NCBI GenBank assembly: GCA_025201845.1
Contig: MU604025.1
Span: forward strand, 1 to 62,685
Origin: Martensiomyces pterosporus
Taxonomy: Eukaryota > Kickxellomycota > Kickxellomycetes > Kickxellales > Kickxellaceae
Direction: 5' to 3'
Length of the DNA: 62,685 nucleotides
The notes under the pieces were generated by a model. The model was not told the origin of the DNA, did not search any database, and saw only the letters and a list, made by a program, of their open reading frames with translations. Position 1 is the stretch's first letter. Every line of letters starts with the position of its first letter. This document shows positions 36,679-54,231 of the stretch, one piece after another. The position numbers and the translations under genes were made by a program.

Positions 36679-39600
36679 CTATTCAGCCATTGCCGCCTCG
36701 CCGTTGTCCTGGTTGCCGCCGTCCGCGCCAGCACCAGCCGCACCCCCGTCGTCCGACAGGATCTGCACGGGCGCGCCGAGCGTCTGGTCCGTGGGCACCA
36801 TCAGAATCAGGTTCTTCGACGTCACTTCTCTGCGGTACTGCGTCAATGCCTGCGTAAATGCGTCCCTGTTCGCCGCCGACAGGGTAAAGTCGGTCGACGA
36901 CAGCAGCTCCTTGAGGGCCTTGATCAGATCCGCTCTCCTCTCGGCCGGCTGGTACTGCACGACCTGGCTGGTGTACTGGAGGGCAAAGTCGGTCTGCAGG
37001 ACGATGAGGCAGAAGAGCGGCCTTGAGAACGACCAGTCGTTGGACCGGTCCTCAAACAGGACGATGTTGAGCATGGCCTTGAGCAGGTACTGGTTGATGT
37101 CCGCACGCCCATGCACCATCTTCACCAGGCTGGAGATGGCCGAGTGCGGCGACCCCTGGCTGGCCCCATTGGGGGTCCCCGCGGCGCCCTCGATGGCAGC
37201 CGTGAACACACCGTCGATCACGCCGCATGCAGCCGACGACACCGCAACCTCGGCGTGATCGAATGCCTCGACGCACAGCCGCATGACCTGCTCGTACGCC
37301 GTGGCATCCAGCTGCACCAGGTCAATGTTGCTCTTTGCCAGCAGCACCTCGAGCATCGACAGGGTGGCCTTGCCGAGCTTGGGGTAGGCAATCACGTCGT
37401 TGACTGGGAACTGCTTCAGAAGCTCCAGCGCCACGCTGTACGCGTTCTCCAGCGCCACGTCGCCATACAGCGGCATGACGCCGATGGCCACGTACTTGCC
37501 CGAGATCAGGCGGGTCAGGATGTTGAAGCACACGGCCACGCCCTTGTAGCGGTCCTTGTAGACGTCCCTCACTGCCTGGCTCCCCTTGAGCACCTGGCTG
37601 CCGTACTCCCACATTGCCTTGCTGGCCTCGCGGAAGATGAGGATGCCGTTGGCTGACGACACGTCAAAGTTCAGCCGCTGCGTGCGGTTGTACACAAACT
37701 CGGCCATGAACTTGAGCGCGGCAATCTGCGTCTGCGCATCTCCGCTGCGCCGCACGCTGCGGTGGATCAGCTGGATGCGCGAGGGGCACAGCCACTTGAA
37801 GAACATCGAGTAGGCGCTCTTCGACGACACAGCGGTCAGAAACCCGCGCAGATCCCTCAGAATGCGAATGAGCCCCGGGCGCACCGAGTCCTGCGCAAAC
37901 TGCGCGTCGGACATGGCAAGCAGCCCGTCAATCATGCGGGTCCACGGCTGCACGAACTGGGCGAACTGGGCGTTTGTCGTGTCGCCGGCAAACAGGATCC
38001 GGGCCAGGGCGGAGTAGTACTGCGACCTCTGCTTGAAGTCGTCAATGCTGCTGAGGAACTGGAACTGGTCGTTGCTGTGGTTCGCCAGGAGCATCTTGAT
38101 CGTGTCCAGCTTGGCCACCTGCCGCACGCTGACGTAGCCCACCGAAAGGTCGTGGAAGAGCTGCAGCGACCTCTGGATGACGGGTGACTGCGACTGCCAC
38201 GTCTTAAAGTTGAACAGCACCTTCTGCAGGATCAGCTCCAGCACGCTGGTGCTGTCGTTGAGCCCGACGTACTCCGACAGCTTTGAGAATATGGCAGTCA
38301 CCTTGTACCCCTGCTCGCCGATGTACGCGGACCGGAAGCAGTAGTACATCTGGATAAAGGCCAGCTCGAGCGCCTCGCACACAGGCGCCGCAATGCTGCT
38401 CTGGATCCTCTGCTGCACCAGGCGGTCGAGCTCCAGCCCGGTGGCAAACAGCTCGGCATCGGTGCGGTCGTCGTCAGGCAGCGACTTGTACGGCTGGCGG
38501 CCGCCAATCGACAGCGCCACGGCATACACGGCCCACGCCAGCTGGCTCTCCATCGTAGCAATCAGCTCCTCGTTGCCCTGGCCCGAGTTGAGCAGCGCCT
38601 GGTACTTTCCAGCCATCTCGCGCAGCAGGTCGGTTATGACTGGCGCACACGTGGCGTACGAGGAGCGCGCAATGTTGGTCACCAGGGTCATGTTCTCGAC
38701 GAGCGCATCCGTGTTGTCCAGCGGATTGTCGGCCAGCGACTCGCCTGTGGAGATCCGCTCCGTAACCAGCACCATCGCGTGCAGGTAGCCCTTGATCACC
38801 TGCGGCAGCGTCTGCGCAATCACGTCGCCCGCAATCTCGTTCTTGCTGTTGTCCTGCGAGTCGTGCGTGGCTGCCACCTTGGCCCAGAAGGTCAGCAGGG
38901 GCGCCACGCTGTTGGCCGACCACTCCCACAGCGTCAGCCCCGTCATCGTAAACGCCGCCGCCGCAGTCAGGAGCTCTCTGTAGACGGGCGTCTCTTCGAT
39001 CTCCACCAGCGTGTGGATGCAGCGGAACCTCGCCAGAAGGCGGCACAGGTGGTGGTAGTTGTCCACGTCGTCCAGCCCAATGGCGTTGGTCAGAATCTCG
39101 GCAATTCCGGCGGACATGCGCTTGACAAACGCGACGCGCACAGTTTCCATGTAGAACGACCGCCGGATCGACGCAATCATCACCAGCACCTCGATGAACT
39201 GGCTGCTGACTGGCGGGTCGCAGTGCTTGTATCCATCGAAGTACGGGTCGAGGAAGTCGTCCACCTGCACCAGGTCCTTCCACGACGACGGGATCTGGAT
39301 AGCCACGGCGTCATCCGACGCGTCATCGGGCGCCAGGCCGATGAAGTCAAAGGCCAGGCAATCTCTCTGCAGCAGGAGCGCGTTCGACAGAACCATTCTC
39401 TTCTCCGCTGTGCTCTCCGTAGCCAGCTGGGCGATGGCCTGGCGCATGGCATCGAGGGAGTGCTCGAATATGCTCTTCAGCTGCTTGTCGCGGAATGTGA
39501 CAATGACCCGGCGCTGCCTGGAGATGTATTTGGGCGGCAGCTCCCTGTTGAACTCCTCGACGAACGCTCTCACCATCTGGAGAGACAGGATCTTGTGCTT

Positions 39601-40603
39601 GTCCGAGGTCTTGCCCATTTCCAGGATGGTGTCGATCACGTCCTTGGAGTCAGGCAGGTCGAACCATGTGAACATGACCACCAGCGCGAGGGTGCGCGTG
39701 GCGTCGTCGATGAGAAAGGTGGGCATGTCGGCGAACTTGTCTCTGACCGCACTGAACAGGCTGTTGCCTACAACAACAGCAGCAAAAAAGAGCCCCGGGT
39801 GCCAGTTGCATTGCTGAAATATGCGTGAGTGGTTTGGCTGTGCGGGCGGATATTTTGGCTCAAGCAAATAGTGTCGATGACGAGCAATGAGAGACGCCGT
39901 CCACAATGGGGGCATGGGAGGGCTGGCTGCTTTGAATTGGCCAGTTCCGCATTCCTCCTCGCCCACCTGGTGGTGGCGGCTGCTGCTGCTGCTGCTGCTA
40001 CTGAAGAGCATGCTGGATGCAGGTCAGGTGTTTCAGTTTCCTGTCTATTCCCGGCGCACACGTGCATGGCGGAGAGGGATGTGCGCCCTCGCACCACAGC
40101 AAGAAAGAGTGAAAAGAAGTTGTTTGCTTACTGCGTGCACACGCACATGCACACACACACACACACACACGTACACACGCACACGCACACAAGACTGCAC
40201 TGCCAGCCGCAGAGAGGAAGGAGTACTTACGGAGATCAGTCTTTTGGGCATTGGGAATGACGTTCAGGTGGTTGAGAACCAGGATTCTTAGTCTGCGGAC
40301 AACGTAGGTGATCGAAAACACCCTGTTCGACTGGTGCAGGAACCACACCATCGAGTTCGCCGCATCGGCAGGGCCCTTGATGGAGGGAAACACCTGGAGC
40401 ACTCGCTCCTGCCCCGAGCTGAACCCATGCGACCCGGATATCTCGGCCAGGGACTCGGCGAACGTTGGAAAGAAATAGCGAAGGCGGCGCTCGGCCTCCT
40501 CGCGCGCCTCGGCAGCGGGCGAGCTCAGCGCTTGCTCGCACCACGCATCCAGCTGCTCGAGCGTCGGCTGCTGCTGGTCGCTGCTGTCTGCAAACAGATT
40601 CAT
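36679..40603 (-). CDS. XPO7: Exportin-7/RanBP16-like nuclear transport receptor
   Basis: Two exons, 40231-40603 and 36679-39767, phase 1 (CTCC|GTAAGT ... GTTGTAG), 1,153 residues, close to animal exportin-7. The junction reads TDLRNSLFSAV. Diagnostic stretches include LAFDFIGLAPDDASDD--AIQIPSSW, DDVDNYHHLCRLLARF, VGLNDSTSVLELIL, LFHDLSVGYVSVR, HNRTQRL-type FNRTQRLNFDVSSANGILIFREASK and the C-terminal NIVLFEDRSNDWSFSRPLFCLIVL. It is an importin-beta-fold, Ran-dependent receptor for folded cargoes. The 463-bp intron contains a CA repeat. Fungal exportin-7 orthologues are absent from common yeasts. Confidence 0.94.
40150..40190. repeat. (CA)n microsatellite in XPO7 intron
   Basis: (CA)10 followed by an imperfect CACACG stretch, inside the XPO7 intron about 40 bases from the donor; (UG)n in the transcript. 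Confidence 0.95.
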
Positions 40604-42889: not shown

Positions 42890-45800
42890 TCAGAGCTTGA
42901 CCTTCAGCCGGCGCAGCGGCTTCCTCTTGCGCATCAGACTGCGCACCGGGCCGTTGATCACAAACACCTGCCAGAAGTTGGTGACCGCCATGTTGCCCAG
43001 GCAGAACACCCAGAGCTGGTACCTGCTGGTCTTGGGGATCACATTGTGGCCCAGCGGGCTATTGTACGGCTCAATGGACCATGTGGGCTTCTTGTACCCA
43101 ATCTTCTCCAGGACCTCGGCGGTGCCGCAGTTCAGACGGAACGAGCATCCAACGCGGTTAGGATCCGCCAGGAGCATGTACGACATGAGGATCATCAGGA
43201 ACGCCCACACAAACATGAGCGCATAGTTCCTGTACCACCGAGCGCGGTACAGATACCCGTAGTTCACGAGGAACCCGTTGTTGATGAACTGGAACGTCGA
43301 GACGAACGACAGGATCGATGCCTCGTAGTTGTCGCCCAGGAGCCACCACTTGGTCACATCGACCTCCGCTGATGCGTGCTCGTTGCATCTGAACCACTCT
43401 TGGCGGAACAGCCAGACATAGGAGAGCATGGAGAACAGCCAGTTGAACAGCACAATGCCGCCAATCGAGGCCAGCATCTGGGGTCCCAGAATGCGGGATG
43501 TGGGGCGGTAAGGCGCCAGCCTCTTGGCCGGGCCGGACATCGACACCGTGAGCGCCAGCGCGGTGGCAATGGCGCCGTCGATGAGCATCCACAGGTTCTG
43601 CGTCAGACTGATTGCAAAGTAGAAACTGGCCATCTTGACCATCCCCGACATGATCTGCCCGTAGCAGATGAGGGCCGAGAAGTTGGCAAACGACGTGGCA
43701 AGTCCCGCGCGGCTCTGTATGAGGAGCTCGACGCAGGCCATCACCGAGCGGTTGGCTGACGAGAACGGCGAGACGATCGACGCTTCGGCGTCGGAGAGCG
43801 CAATGCCCACGTGTGCGGCACGCAGTGCACCGCAGTCGTTGCCGCCGTCGCCGCACATCGCCGTCACGCCGTACTTCATGTGAAGCTCAATGCACTCGAC
43901 CTTGTTGGCCGGCTTCATGCGAGCAAACACGCGGATGTGGAAGAGCAGGGAGTCGATTGCACCGGTCATGTTGAGGCGCTCAAACGCCGCGCCGCTGACA
44001 ACAAGCTCGGTCGTGGGGAATCCGTCGCCCCCAACCTCTGCCAGGTACGGCGCAATGTCGTCAACGGGCTCCATGGTATCGACGTCGACCCACTTAACCT
44101 CGTGTGCCGATGACTTGCAGTCCCCCAGAAGCACGCGGTTGTTGGGCGGGACCATGCCGCACTGGCGGGCAATATAAACGCCAGTCAGCGCAGTGTCGCC
44201 GGTGACAATGACTGTGCGAGTCGACCCGCCCTTGAGCTCAGCAATCGCCTGCGTGGTGTCCTCCTTGAGCATGTTCTTGAACACAAGAAGACCCAGGAGA
44301 TCGCAGTCCCATTCGAGATCGTCCTGCGAAAACTTCCTGATGCTTTGGACATCAACAGCATCAAGCACCTTGTGCGCAATAGCCAGAACGTAGCAGCCCT
44401 CACGCGCCAGACCAGCGCACCTCTGGTCGTAGTCTGCCGGAATCGATGTGCTGCGAGATATCTGCTTGATGCGCTCAAACGATCCCTTGACAAACACATG
44501 CATCTTGCCCGAGCTTTCATCCAGAATGACGACGGACATGGAGGCACGGGCATGGACAAACTCGAACCGGCGGATGATGTGCAGCTTGCCGAGTCCCGAG
44601 CCCTCAGCAGGCAGGATTGCATCGAGGTACTCTGGGTTGGGGTCGATGGCCGACCTGGACGCGCGGAACTGCTCGATGTCGACGGGGTTTCCAATCAGCT
44701 GGCCATTGAGATCCGTCACTGCATGGCAGCTAGCCACAGCCTGCTGGAACAGCACATCTGTGCTCGCTAGATCACTGGCAAACTGCGCAAACGCGCCGGT
44801 AGAGGCATCGACGCACTGCCCGCCGTAGTACTCCAGCCCCTCCTTGGTAAGCGTCCCGGTCTTGTCGAAGCAGAAGATCTGCACCTTGCCAGCCGTCATG
44901 ATGCGCTGGGGGTCGACGCAGTAGATCTGCTTCCTGCGAAGCCTTGCTGCTGCAATCGACTGGCCAATGACCATGGCCGCCGGCAGCAGCGGCGAGAGCA
45001 GCTGGGCAATGGCAAAGACGCCGTAGAACACAATGGCCACGGCGTTTCCCTGGTACAGGTACGAGGCCATGCCCATGACAAAGATGGCGTAGAGGACGAG
45101 GATGGAGATGACGATGCGGATCTGCTCGTTGAAGATGAACGAGATCGGGTTGGGGAACAGGATCTTGCGCACCAGCTGGCCCTTGTCAGACGACGTGCCG
45201 GTGCGGTTGACAAGCGCCAGCACCTTGTCGCTCTCCAGGCTATCTGTGGACTTGGTGACGGGCTGCACCTGGGATACGATGGTGCCTGCGAAGAGCGTCG
45301 ACATCTTGCCAGCGCCAGCCACCTCGTAGTGGCTGTTGTCGATGTGCAGCGGGAATTTGCGGATCGGCAGCGGCTCTCCAGTCAGCGAGGACTCGTTCAT
45401 GATCGTGTTGCCCGAAATAAGAATGCAGTCGCAGGACATGTGCGCGCCAGATGTGACCTCGACAACATCTCCGGGGACCAGGTCCTTGGTTGACGCCTGG
45501 ATCCACTGGCCATCGCGCTTCACCGAGACAAGCTCCTCCTGCTCCGTCATGCGCTTAAGCCGCTTCTCCGACGCCAGGCGCAAAAAGACCTTGATTGAAG
45601 CCGAGATAAGAATGACGCCGGTGTCGACAAGACCCACCTGGTAGTAGCCGTAGAAGTAGAATGCCCAGAGGAAAATGAACTGGTAGATGTAGAAGAACGT
45701 CGACATCTCGCGCACAAACGCCATGAAGACGCTCGGCACCTTGACCTCGATGAAGTTGGGGCCAACAAGCTCCAGGCGGTAGCTGGCATCATTCGAGGAG

Positions 45801-47402
45801 AGGCCATTTGACTGCCCAATCAGCCCGCGGTGGCTGGTGCCCAGATCAAAGTCGAAGGGTGCGTACTGCTGGATCTGCTCGTCAAACACGTAGCGCGTGC
45901 ACTGGTAGGTGAAGAAGGTGCGCCCCTCGCTGGTCTTTTCGACAGGGCAGGTGGTGAAATCCTTGTCCTGGGAAAGCACAATTGCCAGGGTTTCGGCGAG
46001 GATGTTGATCCGCTTTTGCAGCCATGTCTCCCTGTCTGTCAGCATCTTGACTTCGTGCACGGGGCGCACGACGCACACATACTGGCCCTTTGCAGGGAGC
46101 GTCTGGATGCGGTAGTGGTTGCGCAGGTGCGGCTTGAGAATGCACAGGGTGATGAGGATAACGAACGAGATCCCCCAGACAACCAGGAAGGAAGCCAGCT
46201 CAAGGAAGCTGCTCTCAAGAGCAAGGCTGTTGGGGACATCATAGCGGGCGCCAGGGAGGGCGCCGTAGTAGTCGGCAGTCCAGACGCCGAGGTAGCAGAT
46301 CCACAGAGCAGTGACAATGCCGACGGACCAGATGCAGATGGTCCCAAAAAAGTGGTCGCGGTATCCACGCAGCCTGATGTCGCGGTTCAAGCTATCCGTG
46401 GTTTCCAGCAACGAGGGGCTGACCACCTGGTCCTTGCCGCCCTTGTCGAAGTCGCCGTCAGCCACATCGGTAGTGGGCTTGTCGGCCTTGCCCAAAGCAG
46501 CCTCCGGGTTTCCGGTGCGCTTGGCCTCGGCACCATTCAGCATGTAAGCGGAGAGCGAGCGGACGTTGCGCTCAGCAAAGCGCTTGTAGACGGACCACAG
46601 GACAAGGATCACAGCCAGCGCGCCGTTGACAGCAAACGTGGCCAGCCAGTAGCCCTCGTTGTACTTGTAGTTAGGCGCCGGTGCACGCGGGCACTCTGCC
46701 CACACACCAAGCAAGCCGCTCTCGCTTGTCAGGCGGGTTCCCCAGATCCCCACCGAGGTGCTCTGGTCGGCAATTCCAGCCTGCGCACCGCATGCCTCGC
46801 GGATATCGACTTTGGAGTTCCAGGGATGGAACTGGGTAATGTTCACATCGGGAATGGCCACGCACGGCACCAGGGGTTTGGCAGCCGAGGGAAGCTTCTT
46901 GCCGCTGCGGCTGCAGTGGCATGGGTTGAGGGCCTGGATGTCCGGCGTGCACTCGTCGTGGCACTTGCTGTCAGCACAGAAGGACTGTCCCGAGGGGCAG
47001 CTTGGCTGCACTGCAGATGGGCAGTGGGAGGTATCCAGCACACATAGCCAACTGCATTTCACGTTGTCCATCTCACGCAGAGTGCATTCCTTGCCGTGGG
47101 CATCATACCGATTAACTATATGTTGCAGAGCAGTAGGGCGTCATTCAGCGAATTAAGCGATCGAAGTAGGCTGTGGCATCACTGCTACTATGATTTATCG
47201 TGATAGGAGAAAGTGGGAAAGCGGAGAAGCAGGCGCCTGAGCGCATGTGTGCGTGAGACAGCAGAGGTCCCTATCCCTTCAGTCGTGCCTGTGTAGTAGC
47301 CGTGCTGATGCGTGACTTACCTTGGTGCCAAAGCTGGTTTGCGCTGGCGACTTGGGCGCCAAGCAGAGCGACGAGAACCAGCAGCAGCGACCTGCGATCC
47401 AT
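42890..47402 (-). CDS. P5-type ATPase with secreted Cys-rich N-terminal domain
   Basis: Two exons, 47321-47402 and 42890-47115, phase 1 (CACCAAG|GTAAGT ... ATATAG), 1,435 residues. Exon 1 encodes a signal peptide (MDRRSLLLVLVALLGAQVASA). About 135 residues with 13 Cys follow before the first membrane segment. P-type ATPase motifs are DKTGTLT (Asp778), KGSFE, TGDTALTG and GDGGNDCGALRAAHVGIALSDAEAS, the last typical of P5 ATPases. The P5 family's TM4 PPALP-type motif is replaced by SPLLP (735-739), and TGES by TGEP. P5B members (Ypk9, ATP13A2) export polyamines or cations from lysosomes and vacuoles. Assignment to P5 is firm; subclass and substrate are not. Confidence 0.9.
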
Positions 47403-49170: not shown

Positions 49171-52100
49171 ATGGAGCCGTCGACGATTGTGCGAATCAGC
49201 AGCCTGGCCAGCGTTCGGCGAGCAATGCGGTCCAAGCACACCGGGGACGGCACTGAAGACAGCGACTCGGTGGCATTTGATTCACGTGGCGGGTGCGCCT
49301 TGTTGGGGTCACTGCGGGTGGCAGAACGAGCAGAAGCACTGGAGCGCGCGCCATTCCACGTGCATGCGGGATGCCTCGTATTCACCGATGGCAATTTCTC
49401 ACAGGCTCCTGGCACGGCGGTCCGCGAGGAGATCAGATGCGTGGCACTCAGCCCGCAGCCGTCGTGGTTCAGCGGCGATGTCAGGGCGCTGCTCACCCAC
49501 TGGCGGTACATCTCCCCTGCCAAAGCACTCCGCGGCACCACCAGCGACGCCTGGGCCTACATCGAAATAACCTCTGCACCAATCCTAATCAGCACAACCA
49601 TCACGCCCCCAATCGTAGACCGGCCGCTCTCGTGGTGGTCGAAGCACCGCGTGTACCCAGAGCTCGCCTTAGAGCAAGAGTTTCTCACACTCATCCGCAA
49701 ATCGCCCATTCTCAGCGGGCCAAAGGCAGTCCGCATTCTGATGCAGCAGCAAGCACCAGTGGACACGCCAGCGGCAGATAGCGGGGTGGGTCGGCGAAAG
49801 CACATGTCAATTCTGGGCCGCGTAGCCGCAATGAGCTCGCTTATCACGGCCCCGAATGGGCAGCCAGCATTTCTAGCTGACATAGCCATAGAACCGCCGC
49901 CCGGCGATGATCCAGCGCCCCCAGTCCCGGTGCTTTTGAGTGGACGGCGGTTCCTGGGTCTGTTTGCCTCGCTGTATATTGGGGATTCGCTGTTTGTTAG
50001 CGAGCTACAAGCGGCGATGCTGTGTGCGGAGAGCGGGGATCAAAAGAGGCCAATCTTTATGACGTCGCTGGAGGAATCGCAGGCGTTTCGAGTGGACGAC
50101 TTTGATGCGCTGGAAGAGAGCCAAATACTTGCGCCCCTGTCGCAGGCGCCGTTCACGCAGAGGTCCCAAGAGACGCTTCTCTCCCAGATTGCGACCAACC
50201 ACTCGCAAAACAGCGATGCTCAGGATGTAGCTGCCGACTCTCAGGCAAGTGGCGAAAGCAGGAGCCAGCCATCGCAGCACTGGGCGCGGTCCTCGCAGCC
50301 ACAGACAGCAAGAAGCGACCCTCACCTGCAAGCTCACAGCGGCAGACTCGAAAGCTACTCGGGCGAAATCACGAGGGTCGTGGACTTGGTGCTGGGGATT
50401 TACGTCGTGGACAGCTGCCATCTGCTGGTGCTCACATACTGGCCGATGCTCTCGCCCCTGCTGCCCCTGCGTCCAGGCACTCGCGTGCTGGTTGACAACG
50501 CCCATGTTGTTTTGCTGTCCAACTCTCCGGCCTACCACTGGGACTGGCTCAAGCGTGTGGCTCCGCACAACCAAGAAGGCGCTCCAAGGCTGAGCGAACA
50601 AAAGGCACTTGTGTTTGGCGCATGTGCGCGTTCGTCTGTCCGCATTGTTGAGTTTGCGCAGTCCAGCGACCCAGGCCCCGTGCATACGGCTCTAGACACC
50701 ACGATTGCTCCGTTGCTAGCCAAAAAAGCGCATGGGCTTGTTCAGATGGTCGAGACAGCGGAGGCGTTCTGGAAGATGCGTGCAAAGTTCCCCCACGGTT
50801 TCTTGGCAGCGGAGAAGCAGCAGTCTGCTGCCCAGGCCCTCGATCTGGGATTGGCGTGGGTTGGAATACCAAGCACGCCTGGCGGAGAAGGATCCGTGGC
50901 TACAGCGAACCGCAACCTGTACCTGGAGTTCCTTGACCACGGCCATCACTGCAGAGCCGAAGCAGGCCCCGCCCGTGCACCAGCCCGGATCGTGACACTG
51001 CGCGATGTTGCCGAGCGATTTCTGGGATTGCAGAGCAGCCAGCAAAAGCATGCCAGCAGCAGCAGCAACAGGGCTGGTGGCAGTGGTGCAGAAGTGGAGC
51101 TGGCAAACATATACCCCGAGGACCTGCACCTAGGCTCTGTGCCGCTGATTGGGCGTCTTGCTGTCAGCGAACGCGGCGGCCTCTACCTGCAAGACGCTAC
51201 TGGAAAGATAAGGATCCACCCTGACGCCGTGGGGTCCGCCAAACCTGCACCCGACAGCCCTGTGCATCGGCCAGTTTTTCCTGGACAGGAAATGGTGGGC
51301 CATGTATGCTCGTGGACGCACTGGCGGTTTTCTATCGAGACGGCTGATGTTGCTAAGCTGCCAGGCACAATAGGCAGGATGCCCAGCTTCAATCTGGTTT
51401 ATGCGCCTGTGTCGAGCCCCACGCTTGTTTGTTTTGACGAGGCGTTTGGAGGTGCTCTTTCACGCTCGCAAGAGAGTCAATCCAGAGCAGAGCAGAAAAG
51501 CGCACTGCTCTTTGCCCATTCGCATGGAGCTGCAGTGGCTCAATCGGATGAGGGCGGCGCTTGGTCAACGACATCGACTGTAAAGGGAGTCCTGCTGGAA
51601 GTGGACAGCGAGGCATGCAGCACGCTGTCGAGCACAGAGGACAAAGAGAACATTCCGCACCTGCACGTTGGCAAAGCAAGCAGCTCGAGATTGCAGACGT
51701 GTTTGCTGACATTAAGGCTGTCGCAGAGACCGGTGCTGCTCGCTCCAGGCAGCGCCTATTTGATCTGCGTACAGAACCCAGCAGCCATGCGCCATTACCA
51801 GGACACCAGAGGCAAGCCATATGGTTCGCTGACAACGATCGAGCTTGGCCCCAGCGACCACATCCATCCCGTTCACGTCGACTGCACTGTCCATTCGGAC
51901 GGCAAGAGCAGTCAGCCCAAGACTGTGCAGAGCGAACCCCTGCTTGCGTGCCTCTCGAGCCAGGCACTGCGCATTCCCACAGTCCACATACAAGCGACGG
52001 AGGATATCTTTTCGCATATCCAGCCGCCCAAGGTGTATCCAGTATCGGCCTTCGCCAGGAGCAGCAGCAGCAGCTACGGCAGGCAGCAGCCACACGCAAG

Positions 52101-53226
52101 CCGTCAGCCTGAGCACACACCTGGCAGCATAGTATCAGTGTGTGGTGTCATTCTACAGCGCCAAGTGAAAAAGGCCATCGCGCTCTCCACCGTCACACCC
52201 ACATCCAGAAAGCACACCAGCGGGGCCCACCATGCCAATCAGACCCCCTTGTTGGCTGACTCGATGCCCGGCTTGCTCGAGAGCTGCATCACTCTGTGCG
52301 ATGATGAGGACCCGACCAGCACCACCACGCTTTACATCAAGCTGCCGAGCTTTGCACACCCGCTTGGGCTGATCCCTGGAGCACGGTTTGTCTTCAGAGA
52401 TGTGCTTGTGAACACTGCCAAAAGCACAGGAAGGGTGTACCTCATGGGAACAGCGACAACATGTGTGCAAGCGATGCCCAGAGAGCTGCTCTCCGCCAAG
52501 ACGGCTGATGAACCTGATGAGCCTGATTTGGCAGATTCCAGTGCGGCTAAGGTCCATATAGGAGACCTGTATGCTCCACTGGCTAAAACCGACATCGAGC
52601 TGGTGTCTCTGTGCTGCCGGATCGATAAGATCGAGCACCTCACAATCTCAGCATTCTGCCTGACGTGCAGCAAGACCCTCTGCGCGATGCGGTGCTTGTG
52701 CGCGAACAAGCGACATAGGCTAGTAGCCAAACACCACAGCGGCGCTGCTCATTCCAAGCCTGCCACAGTGAGAACTGAAGCAGAGCTCCAATGCCGAGTA
52801 TCTGACGGTAGCGGCATTGCAGGGATGACTGTCAGTGGCGAGTCCAACCTGGCCGCTGCGCTTAATCTTTCGCACTCAGACCTTGAGGTATTGCTTGGTG
52901 CCGCAGCGCAGTCGTGGAATGGCCAGCTGCTGTGGAAGCCGCAGCAGCCTGGTTTTCGCGACACTGCTAATGCTGCCAGCACAGCAGCAGCGCCGGAACA
53001 GGGCGATGTTGCGTGGGTGCTCGAGCGAGCTGCGGCAGCATCCAGCTGTGCAATGCTCCGCGTTGAAGGCAGAGTCCAGCGCTCGGCGACTGTCAGGCTG
53101 CAGCCACTGCGCATCAACAGGCAGAGCGTGCTTGTGAACCAGAGTGTGCCCCCGAGAATTCTTGCGCACAAGGTCGCCCGGCCAGACACACTGGAGCTGT
53201 GCTGGGAGCTGCTTCAAAGCACTTGA
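49171..53226 (+). CDS. CTC1: CTC1-like CST telomere-maintenance complex subunit
   Basis: One exon, 1,351 residues. The C-terminal third resembles vertebrate CTC1: HPLGLIPGARFVFRDV from about residue 1063; a Cys-rich, zinc-ribbon-like insertion with C1163, C1166, C1171, C1175 and C1177; then an OB-fold segment EAELQCRVSDGSGIAGMTV and NLAAALNLSHSDLEVLL. CTC1 with STN1 and TEN1 binds telomeric ssDNA and recruits polymerase alpha-primase. Repeated OB-like beta segments fill the rest, as in CTC1. Residues 301-376 form a linker with 11 SQ/TQ sites. Length is close to animal CTC1. Homology rests on motif pattern by eye; the N-terminal two thirds are too diverged for me to confirm. Confidence 0.75.
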   Translation: MEPSTIVRISSLASVRRAMRSKHTGDGTEDSDSVAFDSRGGCALLGSLRVAERAEALERAPFHVHAGCLVFTDGNFSQAPGTAVREEIRCVALSPQPSWFSGDVRALLTHWRYISPAKALRGTTSDAWAYIEITSAPILISTTITPPIVDRPLSWWSKHRVYPELALEQEFLTLIRKSPILSGPKAVRILMQQQAPVDTPAADSGVGRRKHMSILGRVAAMSSLITAPNGQPAFLADIAIEPPPGDDPAPPVPVLLSGRRFLGLFASLYIGDSLFVSELQAAMLCAESGDQKRPIFMTSLEESQAFRVDDFDALEESQILAPLSQAPFTQRSQETLLSQIATNHSQNSDAQDVAADSQASGESRSQPSQHWARSSQPQTARSDPHLQAHSGRLESYSGEITRVVDLVLGIYVVDSCHLLVLTYWPMLSPLLPLRPGTRVLVDNAHVVLLSNSPAYHWDWLKRVAPHNQEGAPRLSEQKALVFGACARSSVRIVEFAQSSDPGPVHTALDTTIAPLLAKKAHGLVQMVETAEAFWKMRAKFPHGFLAAEKQQSAAQALDLGLAWVGIPSTPGGEGSVATANRNLYLEFLDHGHHCRAEAGPARAPARIVTLRDVAERFLGLQSSQQKHASSSSNRAGGSGAEVELANIYPEDLHLGSVPLIGRLAVSERGGLYLQDATGKIRIHPDAVGSAKPAPDSPVHRPVFPGQEMVGHVCSWTHWRFSIETADVAKLPGTIGRMPSFNLVYAPVSSPTLVCFDEAFGGALSRSQESQSRAEQKSALLFAHSHGAAVAQSDEGGAWSTTSTVKGVLLEVDSEACSTLSSTEDKENIPHLHVGKASSSRLQTCLLTLRLSQRPVLLAPGSAYLICVQNPAAMRHYQDTRGKPYGSLTTIELGPSDHIHPVHVDCTVHSDGKSSQPKTVQSEPLLACLSSQALRIPTVHIQATEDIFSHIQPPKVYPVSAFARSSSSSYGRQQPHASRQPEHTPGSIVSVCGVILQRQVKKAIALSTVTPTSRKHTSGAHHANQTPLLADSMPGLLESCITLCDDEDPTSTTTLYIKLPSFAHPLGLIPGARFVFRDVLVNTAKSTGRVYLMGTATTCVQAMPRELLSAKTADEPDEPDLADSSAAKVHIGDLYAPLAKTDIELVSLCCRIDKIEHLTISAFCLTCSKTLCAMRCLCANKRHRLVAKHHSGAAHSKPATVRTEAELQCRVSDGSGIAGMTVSGESNLAAALNLSHSDLEVLLGAAAQSWNGQLLWKPQQPGFRDTANAASTAAAPEQGDVAWVLERAAAASSCAMLRVEGRVQRSATVRLQPLRINRQSVLVNQSVPPRILAHKVARPDTLELCWELLQST

Positions 53227-53466: not shown

Positions 53467-54231
53467 ATGTCTGGCAAAATTTTCCAGCCCAACACCAAGA
53501 TTCGCCTTACCAACGTGTCAATCGTTCGGCTTCGCAAGGGCGGCAAGCGATTCGAGGTGGCGTGCTACAAGAACAAGGTGACGGAGTGGCGCAACGGCGT
53601 CGAAAAGGACATCGACGAGGTACTGCAGATCCACCAGGTCTACGTTAACGTGTCCAAGGGCCAAGTGGCCAAGACCGAGGAGCTCAAAAAATGCTTCAAG
53701 ACCGAGGACGTCGACGAGGTAATCGCCGAGATCCTGAAGAAGGGCGAGCAGCAGGTGTCGGATAAGGAGCGGCACCACCAGCTGGACAACATGCTCCGCG
53801 ACATTGCCACCGTGGTGGCCGAGAAGTGCATCAACCCGACGACTTCGAGACCGTATACGGTGACGATGATCGAGAAGGCTATGGGCGACTTGCATTACTC
53901 GGTCAACCAGAACAGGAGCGCCAAGCAGCAAGCCTTGGATGTTATCAAGCAGATCCAGCAGCAGAATATTATGCCCATCTCGAGGGCGCAGATGCGCATT
54001 CGGGTCACGATGCCGGCGAAGGAGGCGAAGCGGATGAAGGACAAGGTCACAGCGCTGGCTGCAAAGGTCGAGGATGAGGACTACAGCGACGAGTACGAGC
54101 TTATTTGCCTCATTGATCCGGGGCAGTTCAGGGCCATCACTGATCTGCTGCAGTCGGAGCTCAAGGGCCGCGGCGAAATCGACGTGCTGAATCTCCGCGA
54201 TACTAATGACGAGGACAGCACCTTTATGTAG
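53467..54231 (+). CDS. SDO1: SBDS/Sdo1 ribosome maturation factor
   Basis: Single coding exon, 254 residues, full family length. N-terminal FYSH domain ([43 protein letters not shown]), central helical domain ([20 protein letters not shown]), and C-terminal ferredoxin-like domain ([19 protein letters not shown]). Sdo1 works with the GTPase Efl1 to release eIF6 from pre-60S subunits in the cytoplasm. It ends about 100 bp from the convergent ISY1 3' end. Confidence 0.97.
   Translation: [254 protein letters not shown]

What the first reader, a model, noticed from the sequence alone, without database searches (positions are those of the whole stretch)
49171..53226. Vertebrate/plant-style CTC1 in a fungus
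The best-studied fungi use Cdc13 as the large CST subunit, and CTC1 is usually discussed for animals and plants. This 1,351-residue protein has the CTC1 C-terminal layout: a PLGLIPGAR segment, a Cys-rich insertion (C1163 to C1177) inside an OB-fold, and the DGSG and NLAAALNL strings. If confirmed, it places an ancestral-type CST in early fungi and bears on how Cdc13 arose.
Basis: partly seen in the sequence, partly recalled or inferred. Interest (0 to 1): 0.8.

Follow-up and report, generated by a model that had tools for sequence, protein, structure and literature searches.

The report
Animal-type CTC1 telomere protein in fungus
An early-branching fungus carries a full-length version of CTC1, the large subunit of a telomere-copying complex best known from animals and plants, together with likely partners, which suggests the animal-style complex is older than the split between animals and fungi.

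Summary
Confirmed. Window 49171-53226 (+) is an intronless 1,351-codon gene. Its only Pfam match is CTC1 (PF15489, E 2.4e-10, 39.1 bits, cut-off 27.8). I found 25 relatives, all Kickxellales. A profile of 18 members picks human CTC1 out of 177,635 PDB sequences (E 3.5e-15); the next row is an antibody chain at 0.52. Two AlphaFold models covering the protein match human CTC1 in order: residues 1-595 to human 49-534, and 641-1339 to human 591-1205. The same genome has TEN1, a likely STN1, POLA1, TERT and a separate RPA70. So CTC1 occurs in a fungus, and the N-terminal OB-fold 'expansion' called metazoan in print (PMC9371972) is present there. Extra: an SQ/TQ cluster in the linker before OB-C. 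The gene is not new to databases: UniRef names 7 of the 25 relatives 'CST complex subunit CTC1'. How Cdc13 arose stays open; other fungal phyla could not be searched well.

The parts
49171..53226 (+). CTC1 gene, intronless, 1351 aa
   Evidence: N-terminus (MEPSTIVRISSLASVRRAM) aligns with most relatives' own starts
49171..50130 (+). N-terminal OB-fold region (residues 1-320), equivalent to the start of human CTC1 from residue 49 on
50059..50325 (+). disordered linker with SQ/TQ cluster (residues 297-385), contains SQAPFTQRSQETLLSQI
   Evidence: 11 of 18 SQ/TQ of the protein lie here; 0 of 20,000 shuffles of the linker reach 11 (linker chosen after seeing the cluster); pLDDT <50 at 324-383
50326..50670 (+). 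OB-C-like domain (residues 386-500), RLESYSGEITRVVDLVLGIYVVD...LRPGTRVLVDNAHV
   Evidence: best single stretch of the family profile against human CTC1, i-Evalue 4.9e-6
51091..53223 (+). C-terminal half (residues 641-1351), of which 641-1339 corresponds to human 591-1205 (OB-D to OB-G region; exact OB borders not checked)
52303..52908 (+). PF15489 best stretch (residues 1045-1246)
52360..52386 (+). PLGLIPGAR (residues 1064-1072)
52657..52701 (+). putative zinc site C1163-C1166-C1175-C1177
   Evidence: four cysteines constant in 18 of 18; metal binding not tested
52804..52815 (+). DGSG (residues 1212-1215)
   Evidence: 17 of 18 members; DG in 18 of 18
52846..52869 (+). NLAAALNL (residues 1226-1233)
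53467..54231 (+). SBDS ribosome-maturation gene, neighbour, not part of CST
   Evidence: PF01172, PF09377, PF20268; 3 of 25 relatives are CTC1-SBDS fused gene models

Best explanation
This is the fungal orthologue of CTC1, the large subunit of the CST (CTC1-STN1-TEN1) complex. Shown here: full-length co-linear fold match to human CTC1, a conserved C-terminal cysteine site, and in the same genome TEN1, a likely STN1, POLA1 and TERT. Inferred from the human complex: the C-terminal OB-folds hold STN1-TEN1 and bind the telomeric G-rich single strand, the N-terminal and OB-D region docks the C-terminal domain of DNA polymerase alpha, and the complex ends telomerase action and fills in the C-strand.
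For: PF15489 only and above cut-off; 18 of 18 members of A6 match PF15489. Family profile versus PDB: five CTC1 sequences fill the top five rows, E 3.5e-15 to 8.8e-15, next row 0.52, Tetrahymena p75 at E 2. Foldseek and VIA-align matches cover both halves with human residue numbers in order. TEN1: PF15490, 85.8 bits, cut-off 27. STN1 candidate: best PDB hit fission-yeast Stn1, E 8.6e-5; its first-exon piece WGLDPLFWTPAKLFVGDL resembles human STN1 WGLDPVFLAFAKLYIRDI, STN1 chains being the only three rows, at E 0.92 to 1. TERT, POLA1. A separate RPA70 gene exists.
Against: Single-sequence search of the PDB does not find CTC1; the link needs the family profile. Models are of middling confidence (mean pLDDT 67.5 and 60.4) and the C-terminal superposition has rmsd 15.9-19.2 A. 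The genome-wide search with PF15489 scored the gene at only 19.4 bits, under the cut-off, over one stretch. The fourth constant cysteine has no aligned human partner. The STN1 candidate is under its Pfam cut-off, archaeal RPA32 chains follow it at E 0.041, and no RPA32 gene was separately identified here. TEN1 finds no TEN1 in the PDB by single sequence. No POT1 and no telomere array was found. No biochemical data.
Confidence: 0.95

Rival explanations
1. It is a divergent RPA70-type or RADX-type single-strand binding protein, not CTC1, and works in general replication or fork protection.
For: Foldseek also matches RPA70 (4gop_C, 1.8e-12) and RADX (8u5y_B, 9.1e-9; 8u5y_A, 1.4e-7 for the N-terminal half) through shared OB-folds.
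Against: Human CTC1 is better by about 15 and 11 orders of magnitude in E-value in the two halves, and aligns over nearly the whole length. No RPA domain in Pfam. The genome has a canonical RPA70 (PF08646, PF16900, PF04057) with no significant BLASTP similarity to this protein (best E 4.3).
Confidence: 0.03
2. It is a Cdc13-type subunit, i.e. the large CST subunit of budding yeasts, and not CTC1.
For: Same complex and role; an SQ/TQ-rich linker invites comparison with the Cdc13 telomerase recruitment region (inference).
Against: No chain named Cdc13 reaches E 10 in the profile searches of PDB sequences, while human CTC1 does at 3.5e-15, and the structural match to human CTC1 is nearly full length.
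Confidence: 0.01
3. It is CTC1 by descent, but its main job in this fungus is genome-wide replication rescue rather than telomere fill-in.
For: Human CST acts with RAD51 at sites of replication stress (passage of PMC9119445). No telomere repeat array was seen in the assembly.
Against: TERT is present, so telomeres need C-strand synthesis; missing arrays are expected in a 216-contig draft (inference).
Confidence: 0.1

Closest known systems
Human CTC1 (PDB 6w6w, 7u5c, 8d0b, 8d0k, 8soj; PF15489)
   Same: Order of OB-folds over nearly the whole length, C-x2-C...C site in the last third, GLxPGAR and DG motifs; partners TEN1, likely STN1 and POLA1 in the genome.
   Different: 14-22% identity in the structural alignments. 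SQ/TQ-rich linker before OB-C: the human stretch printed just before OB-C has no SQ/TQ (one SQ lies in the piece printed before it). The fourth constant cysteine (CxC) has no aligned human partner.
CTC1 of Coemansia, Kickxella, Linderina, Spiromyces (UniRef 'CST complex subunit CTC1' or hypothetical)
   Same: Same family, 23-42% identical for the 17 of 25 relatives aligned; same four cysteines; SBDS next door in three fused models.
   Different: Spiromyces aspiralis has no SQ/TQ in the aligned linker, and DGSG reads DGTA there.
Cdc13 (budding yeast CST large subunit)
   Same: Likely the same position in CST (inference).
   Different: No detectable sequence match here; four OB-folds according to a passage of PMC8704776, shorter as I recall.
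Tetrahymena p75 (7uy5_I)
   Same: CST large subunit; weak match in the cysteine region, E 2, Foldseek 1.6e-11.
   Different: Chain of 622 residues, under half the length; lack of the N-terminal OB-folds is inferred from length and recall.

Membership tests
CTC1 (PF15489) | Curated profile match above the gathering score | tested here: met
   39.1 bits, cut-off 27.8; 18 of 18 members of A6 match at E up to 1
CTC1 (PF15489) | Multi-OB architecture co-linear with human CTC1 from N- to C-terminus | tested here: met
CTC1 (PF15489) | Zinc-ribbon cysteines in a C-terminal OB-fold (that human CTC1 has one is recalled) | tested here: inconclusive
   four cysteines constant in 18 of 18; three of them align to human CTC1 cysteines, the fourth falls in a gap; metal binding not tested
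CTC1 (PF15489) | TEN1 in the same genome | tested here: met
   PF15490, 85.8 bits, cut-off 27. PF12658 (the other Ten1 family) gave nothing.
CTC1 (PF15489) | STN1 in the same genome | tested here: inconclusive
   Candidate L011, but PF10451 18.5 bits is under its cut-off 21.5, direct searches with PF10451 and PF09170 gave nothing, and the exon structure is uncertain
CTC1 (PF15489) | Binds STN1-TEN1, telomeric ssDNA and Pol alpha-primase | not testable with these tools
   needs protein
Cdc13 | Sequence similarity to Cdc13 | tested here: inconclusive
   no chain named Cdc13 at E up to 10 in two profile searches of PDB sequences; absence from a list does not exclude
RPA70 | RPA70 domain set (PF04057, PF16900, PF08646) | tested here: not met
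   none in P0001 at E up to 10; all three in a separate gene, L010

The most novel reading that the evidence does not exclude
The complete animal-style system (long CTC1 with N-terminal OB-folds plus a POLA1 loop of near-human length) predates the animal-fungus split, contrary to its description as a metazoan development. In Kickxellales the linker before OB-C has become a dense SQ/TQ cluster that checkpoint kinases (Tel1/ATM, Mec1/ATR) use to switch CST between telomerase-permitting and fill-in states, a role that the Cdc13 recruitment domain took over in budding yeasts.
Probability: 0.2. Interest if true: 0.75.

Novelty: new member of a known kind. Interest (0 to 1): 0.5.

Why it matters
The main fungal models have either Cdc13 or, in fission yeast and Ustilago maydis, only Stn1 and Ten1 readily discernible (passage of PMC9119445). 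A fungus with a full CTC1, TEN1 and a likely STN1 gives a missing reference point: the ancestor of fungi probably had CTC1, and Cdc13 or its absence is derived. [quoted passage not shown] This can be tested by structure and binding assays with fungal proteins.

Tried and rejected
Single-sequence search of the PDB gave only chance rows (best 4wfq, E 0.32); the family profile was needed. NCBIfam gave nothing relevant for P0001 (one row, E 0.032, far under its cut-off). PF10451 and PF09170 (Stn1), PF12658 (Ten1), PF02765 and PF16686 (POT1) gave nothing in the genome. For four of the five the tool adds that nothing rang in any control and that this does not show absence (the fifth, PF09170, rang only in Corynebacterium, under its cut-off). 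The STN1 candidate was then found with the general OB family PF01336: 8 places, of which L011 fits STN1; L005, L006, L007, L008, L009 and L012 read as aminoacyl-tRNA synthetases by my own inspection (not profile-tested), and L010 is RPA70. No TTAGGG x4 array; a looser TTAGG pattern found two overlapping matches in one short tract, 4 copies of a 7-base unit on contig C210. TEN1 by single sequence finds no TEN1 in the PDB, only Pfam does. No Cdc13 entry is among the 50 rows shown by Foldseek or VIA-align for either model; those are capped lists and the absence is not used as proof.

Papers: passages only of PMC9119445, PMC4416457, PMC10122647, PMC8704776, PMC12608094, PMC3564818 and PMC3584321; outline, section 7 and passages of PMC9371972. 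PMC7392036 (Lue 2018), PMC7559292 (Lim et al. 2020) and PMC10268231 (He et al. 2022) were not held. No paper on CTC1 in these fungi turned up in searches (9, 19 and 31 returned nothing; of the others I saw listings). Most subscription journals are not held.

Full report
What is there. The strand and coordinates given are right: an open frame from ATG 49171 to a stop ending at 53226, 1,351 residues. A stop-free run of this length did not arise in shuffled DNA of the same composition (longest 305 codons in 200 shuffles).

Family. Pfam gives one family, CTC1 (PF15489), E 2.4e-10, 39.1 bits against a cut-off of 27.8. Three protein searches found 25 other members: Coemansia, Kickxella, Linderina and Spiromyces. 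NCBI places Coemansia and Spiromyces in Kickxellales; for Kickxella and Linderina this is recalled. 23 of the 25 carry PF15489 in the precomputed column, and 7 of 25 show 'CST complex subunit CTC1' as a UniRef name. So the assignment exists as database annotation. Each of the 18 members I aligned in A6 (of 26 including this one) matches PF15489 on its own.

Link to animal CTC1. This sequence alone finds nothing relevant in the PDB. A 12-member profile finds CTC1 chains, E 1.6e-7, and then one unrelated chain at 0.43. With 18 members, including the distant Spiromyces protein, this becomes E 3.5e-15; five CTC1 sequences are the first five rows, the next is an antibody light chain at 0.52, and Tetrahymena p75 appears at E 2. 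The match has two separate stretches in the right order, one in the OB-C-like domain and one in the cysteine region, each significant on its own (i-Evalues 4.9e-6 and 7.2e-6 for 8d0b_A). In the second, cysteines 1163, 1166 and 1175 pair with human cysteines and 1177 does not.

Partners. The genome (17.38 Mb, 216 contigs) has a TEN1 of the Pfam family Ten1_2, 85.8 bits, the family of animal and plant TEN1 as I recall, while the other Ten1 family gave nothing. An STN1 candidate on contig C20 was missed by both Stn1 families in the genome search but picked up as an OB-fold. Its best PDB match is fission-yeast Stn1 (E 8.6e-5), then human STN1 (0.014), then archaeal RPA32 (0.041). Its start, WGLDPLFWTPAKLFVGDL, resembles human STN1 WGLDPVFLAFAKLYIRDI; the only three PDB rows for that 42-residue piece are STN1, at E about 1. 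Its Pfam Stn1 score, 18.5, is below the cut-off of 21.5. No RPA32 gene was identified separately, so confusion with RPA32 is not fully excluded. The frame ends about 135 bases from a convergent BAP31-like gene, so the C-terminal winged-helix part of human STN1 seems to be missing; plant STN1 is similarly short as I recall. TERT, POLA1 and a normal RPA70 are present. POT1 was not found with two families, which is inconclusive: Zahid et al. mention Pot1 homologues with three OB-folds in Zoopagomycota (passage of PMC9119445).

Why the N-terminus matters. Cai et al. 2022 (PMC9371972, section 7) describe the CTC1 N-terminal OB-folds as a metazoan expansion that goes with a loop of uniform length in POLA1 (CRL, residues 1400-1424), short in fission yeast and Tetrahymena, longer in budding yeast. 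By my own count on the alignment, the corresponding stretch in this fungus' POLA1 is 21 residues, against 25 in human and 7 in the fission-yeast swap they used; budding yeast has 15 more than this fungus. Loop length alone is weak evidence and no structure was predicted for it, but with the full-length CTC1 it argues that the arrangement is not confined to metazoans.

A feature not in the finding. Residues 297-385, between the second and third OB-fold and largely predicted disordered, hold 11 of the protein's 18 SQ/TQ dipeptides (12.4 per 100 residues against 0.55 elsewhere; 0 of 20,000 shuffles of the linker reach 11). The stretch was chosen after the cluster had been seen. 17 of 18 members have a higher density in the linker than elsewhere, and in 13 of 18 fewer than 5% of shuffles reach the count; P0007, P0013, P0014, P0024 and Spiromyces (none at all) do not. 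The members are related, so these are not independent. FTQxSQ is exact in 8 of 18, with looser versions in most others (read off). The cluster meets the published definition of an S/T-Q cluster domain (at least 3 within 100, or within 50 in the stricter census; passage of PMC3564818), the signature of Tel1/Mec1 (ATM/ATR) targets. The same paper says that Cdc13, though phosphorylated by Tel1 in vitro, appears not to be its target in vivo, so the analogy with Cdc13 is only a hypothesis.

Mechanism. Best reading: a CST large subunit that carries STN1-TEN1 on its C-terminal OB-folds, holds the G-strand overhang and brings in Pol alpha-primase for C-strand fill-in. The contacts are those described for human CST (STN1 on OB-G and OB-E, passage of PMC12608094; POLA1 on OB-D and the N-terminal folds, PMC9371972).

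Setting. The neighbours I scanned are ordinary eukaryotic genes (10 ORFs, 9 with a Pfam match); SBDS follows CTC1 240 bases downstream, and three relatives are annotated as CTC1-SBDS fusions (P0009, P0019, P0023), most simply gene-model errors that reveal conserved adjacency.

Verdict. The observation and the identification are right. It is a new member of a known family, in a lineage where database entries carry the name but the papers I could search do not discuss it. Its value is comparative: it supports CTC1 in the fungal ancestor and questions the metazoan origin of the N-terminal OB-folds.

Noticed in passing
window 50059-50325: SQ/TQ cluster in the CTC1 linker, dense in most of the 18 members compared but absent in Spiromyces.
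   Followed up: partly
L011 1378-2119 (contig C20 of G000): STN1 candidate that seems to end after the OB-fold, with little room for winged-helix domains before a convergent BAP31-like gene; exon structure uncertain.
   Followed up: partly
L002 1486-2406 (contig C111): POLA1 C-terminal loop corresponding to the human CTC1-recognition loop is about 21 residues, near the human 25; a glutamine run sits in the first zinc module.
   Followed up: partly
window 53467-54231 and relatives P0009, P0019, P0023: CTC1-SBDS adjacency recurs; three public gene models fuse the two genes, probably annotation errors.
   Followed up: partly
window 36679-40011 (-): Long ORF with an exportin-7-like TPR domain (PF25795, 230 bits).
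   Followed up: no
window 42890-47071 (-): Large P-type ATPase (E1-E2), 1393 codons in one open frame.
   Followed up: no
L013 1500-1527 (contig C210): Short array of 4 copies of CTTAGGG; the only TTAGGG-like tract found with the two patterns tried, not at the contig end.
   Followed up: yes
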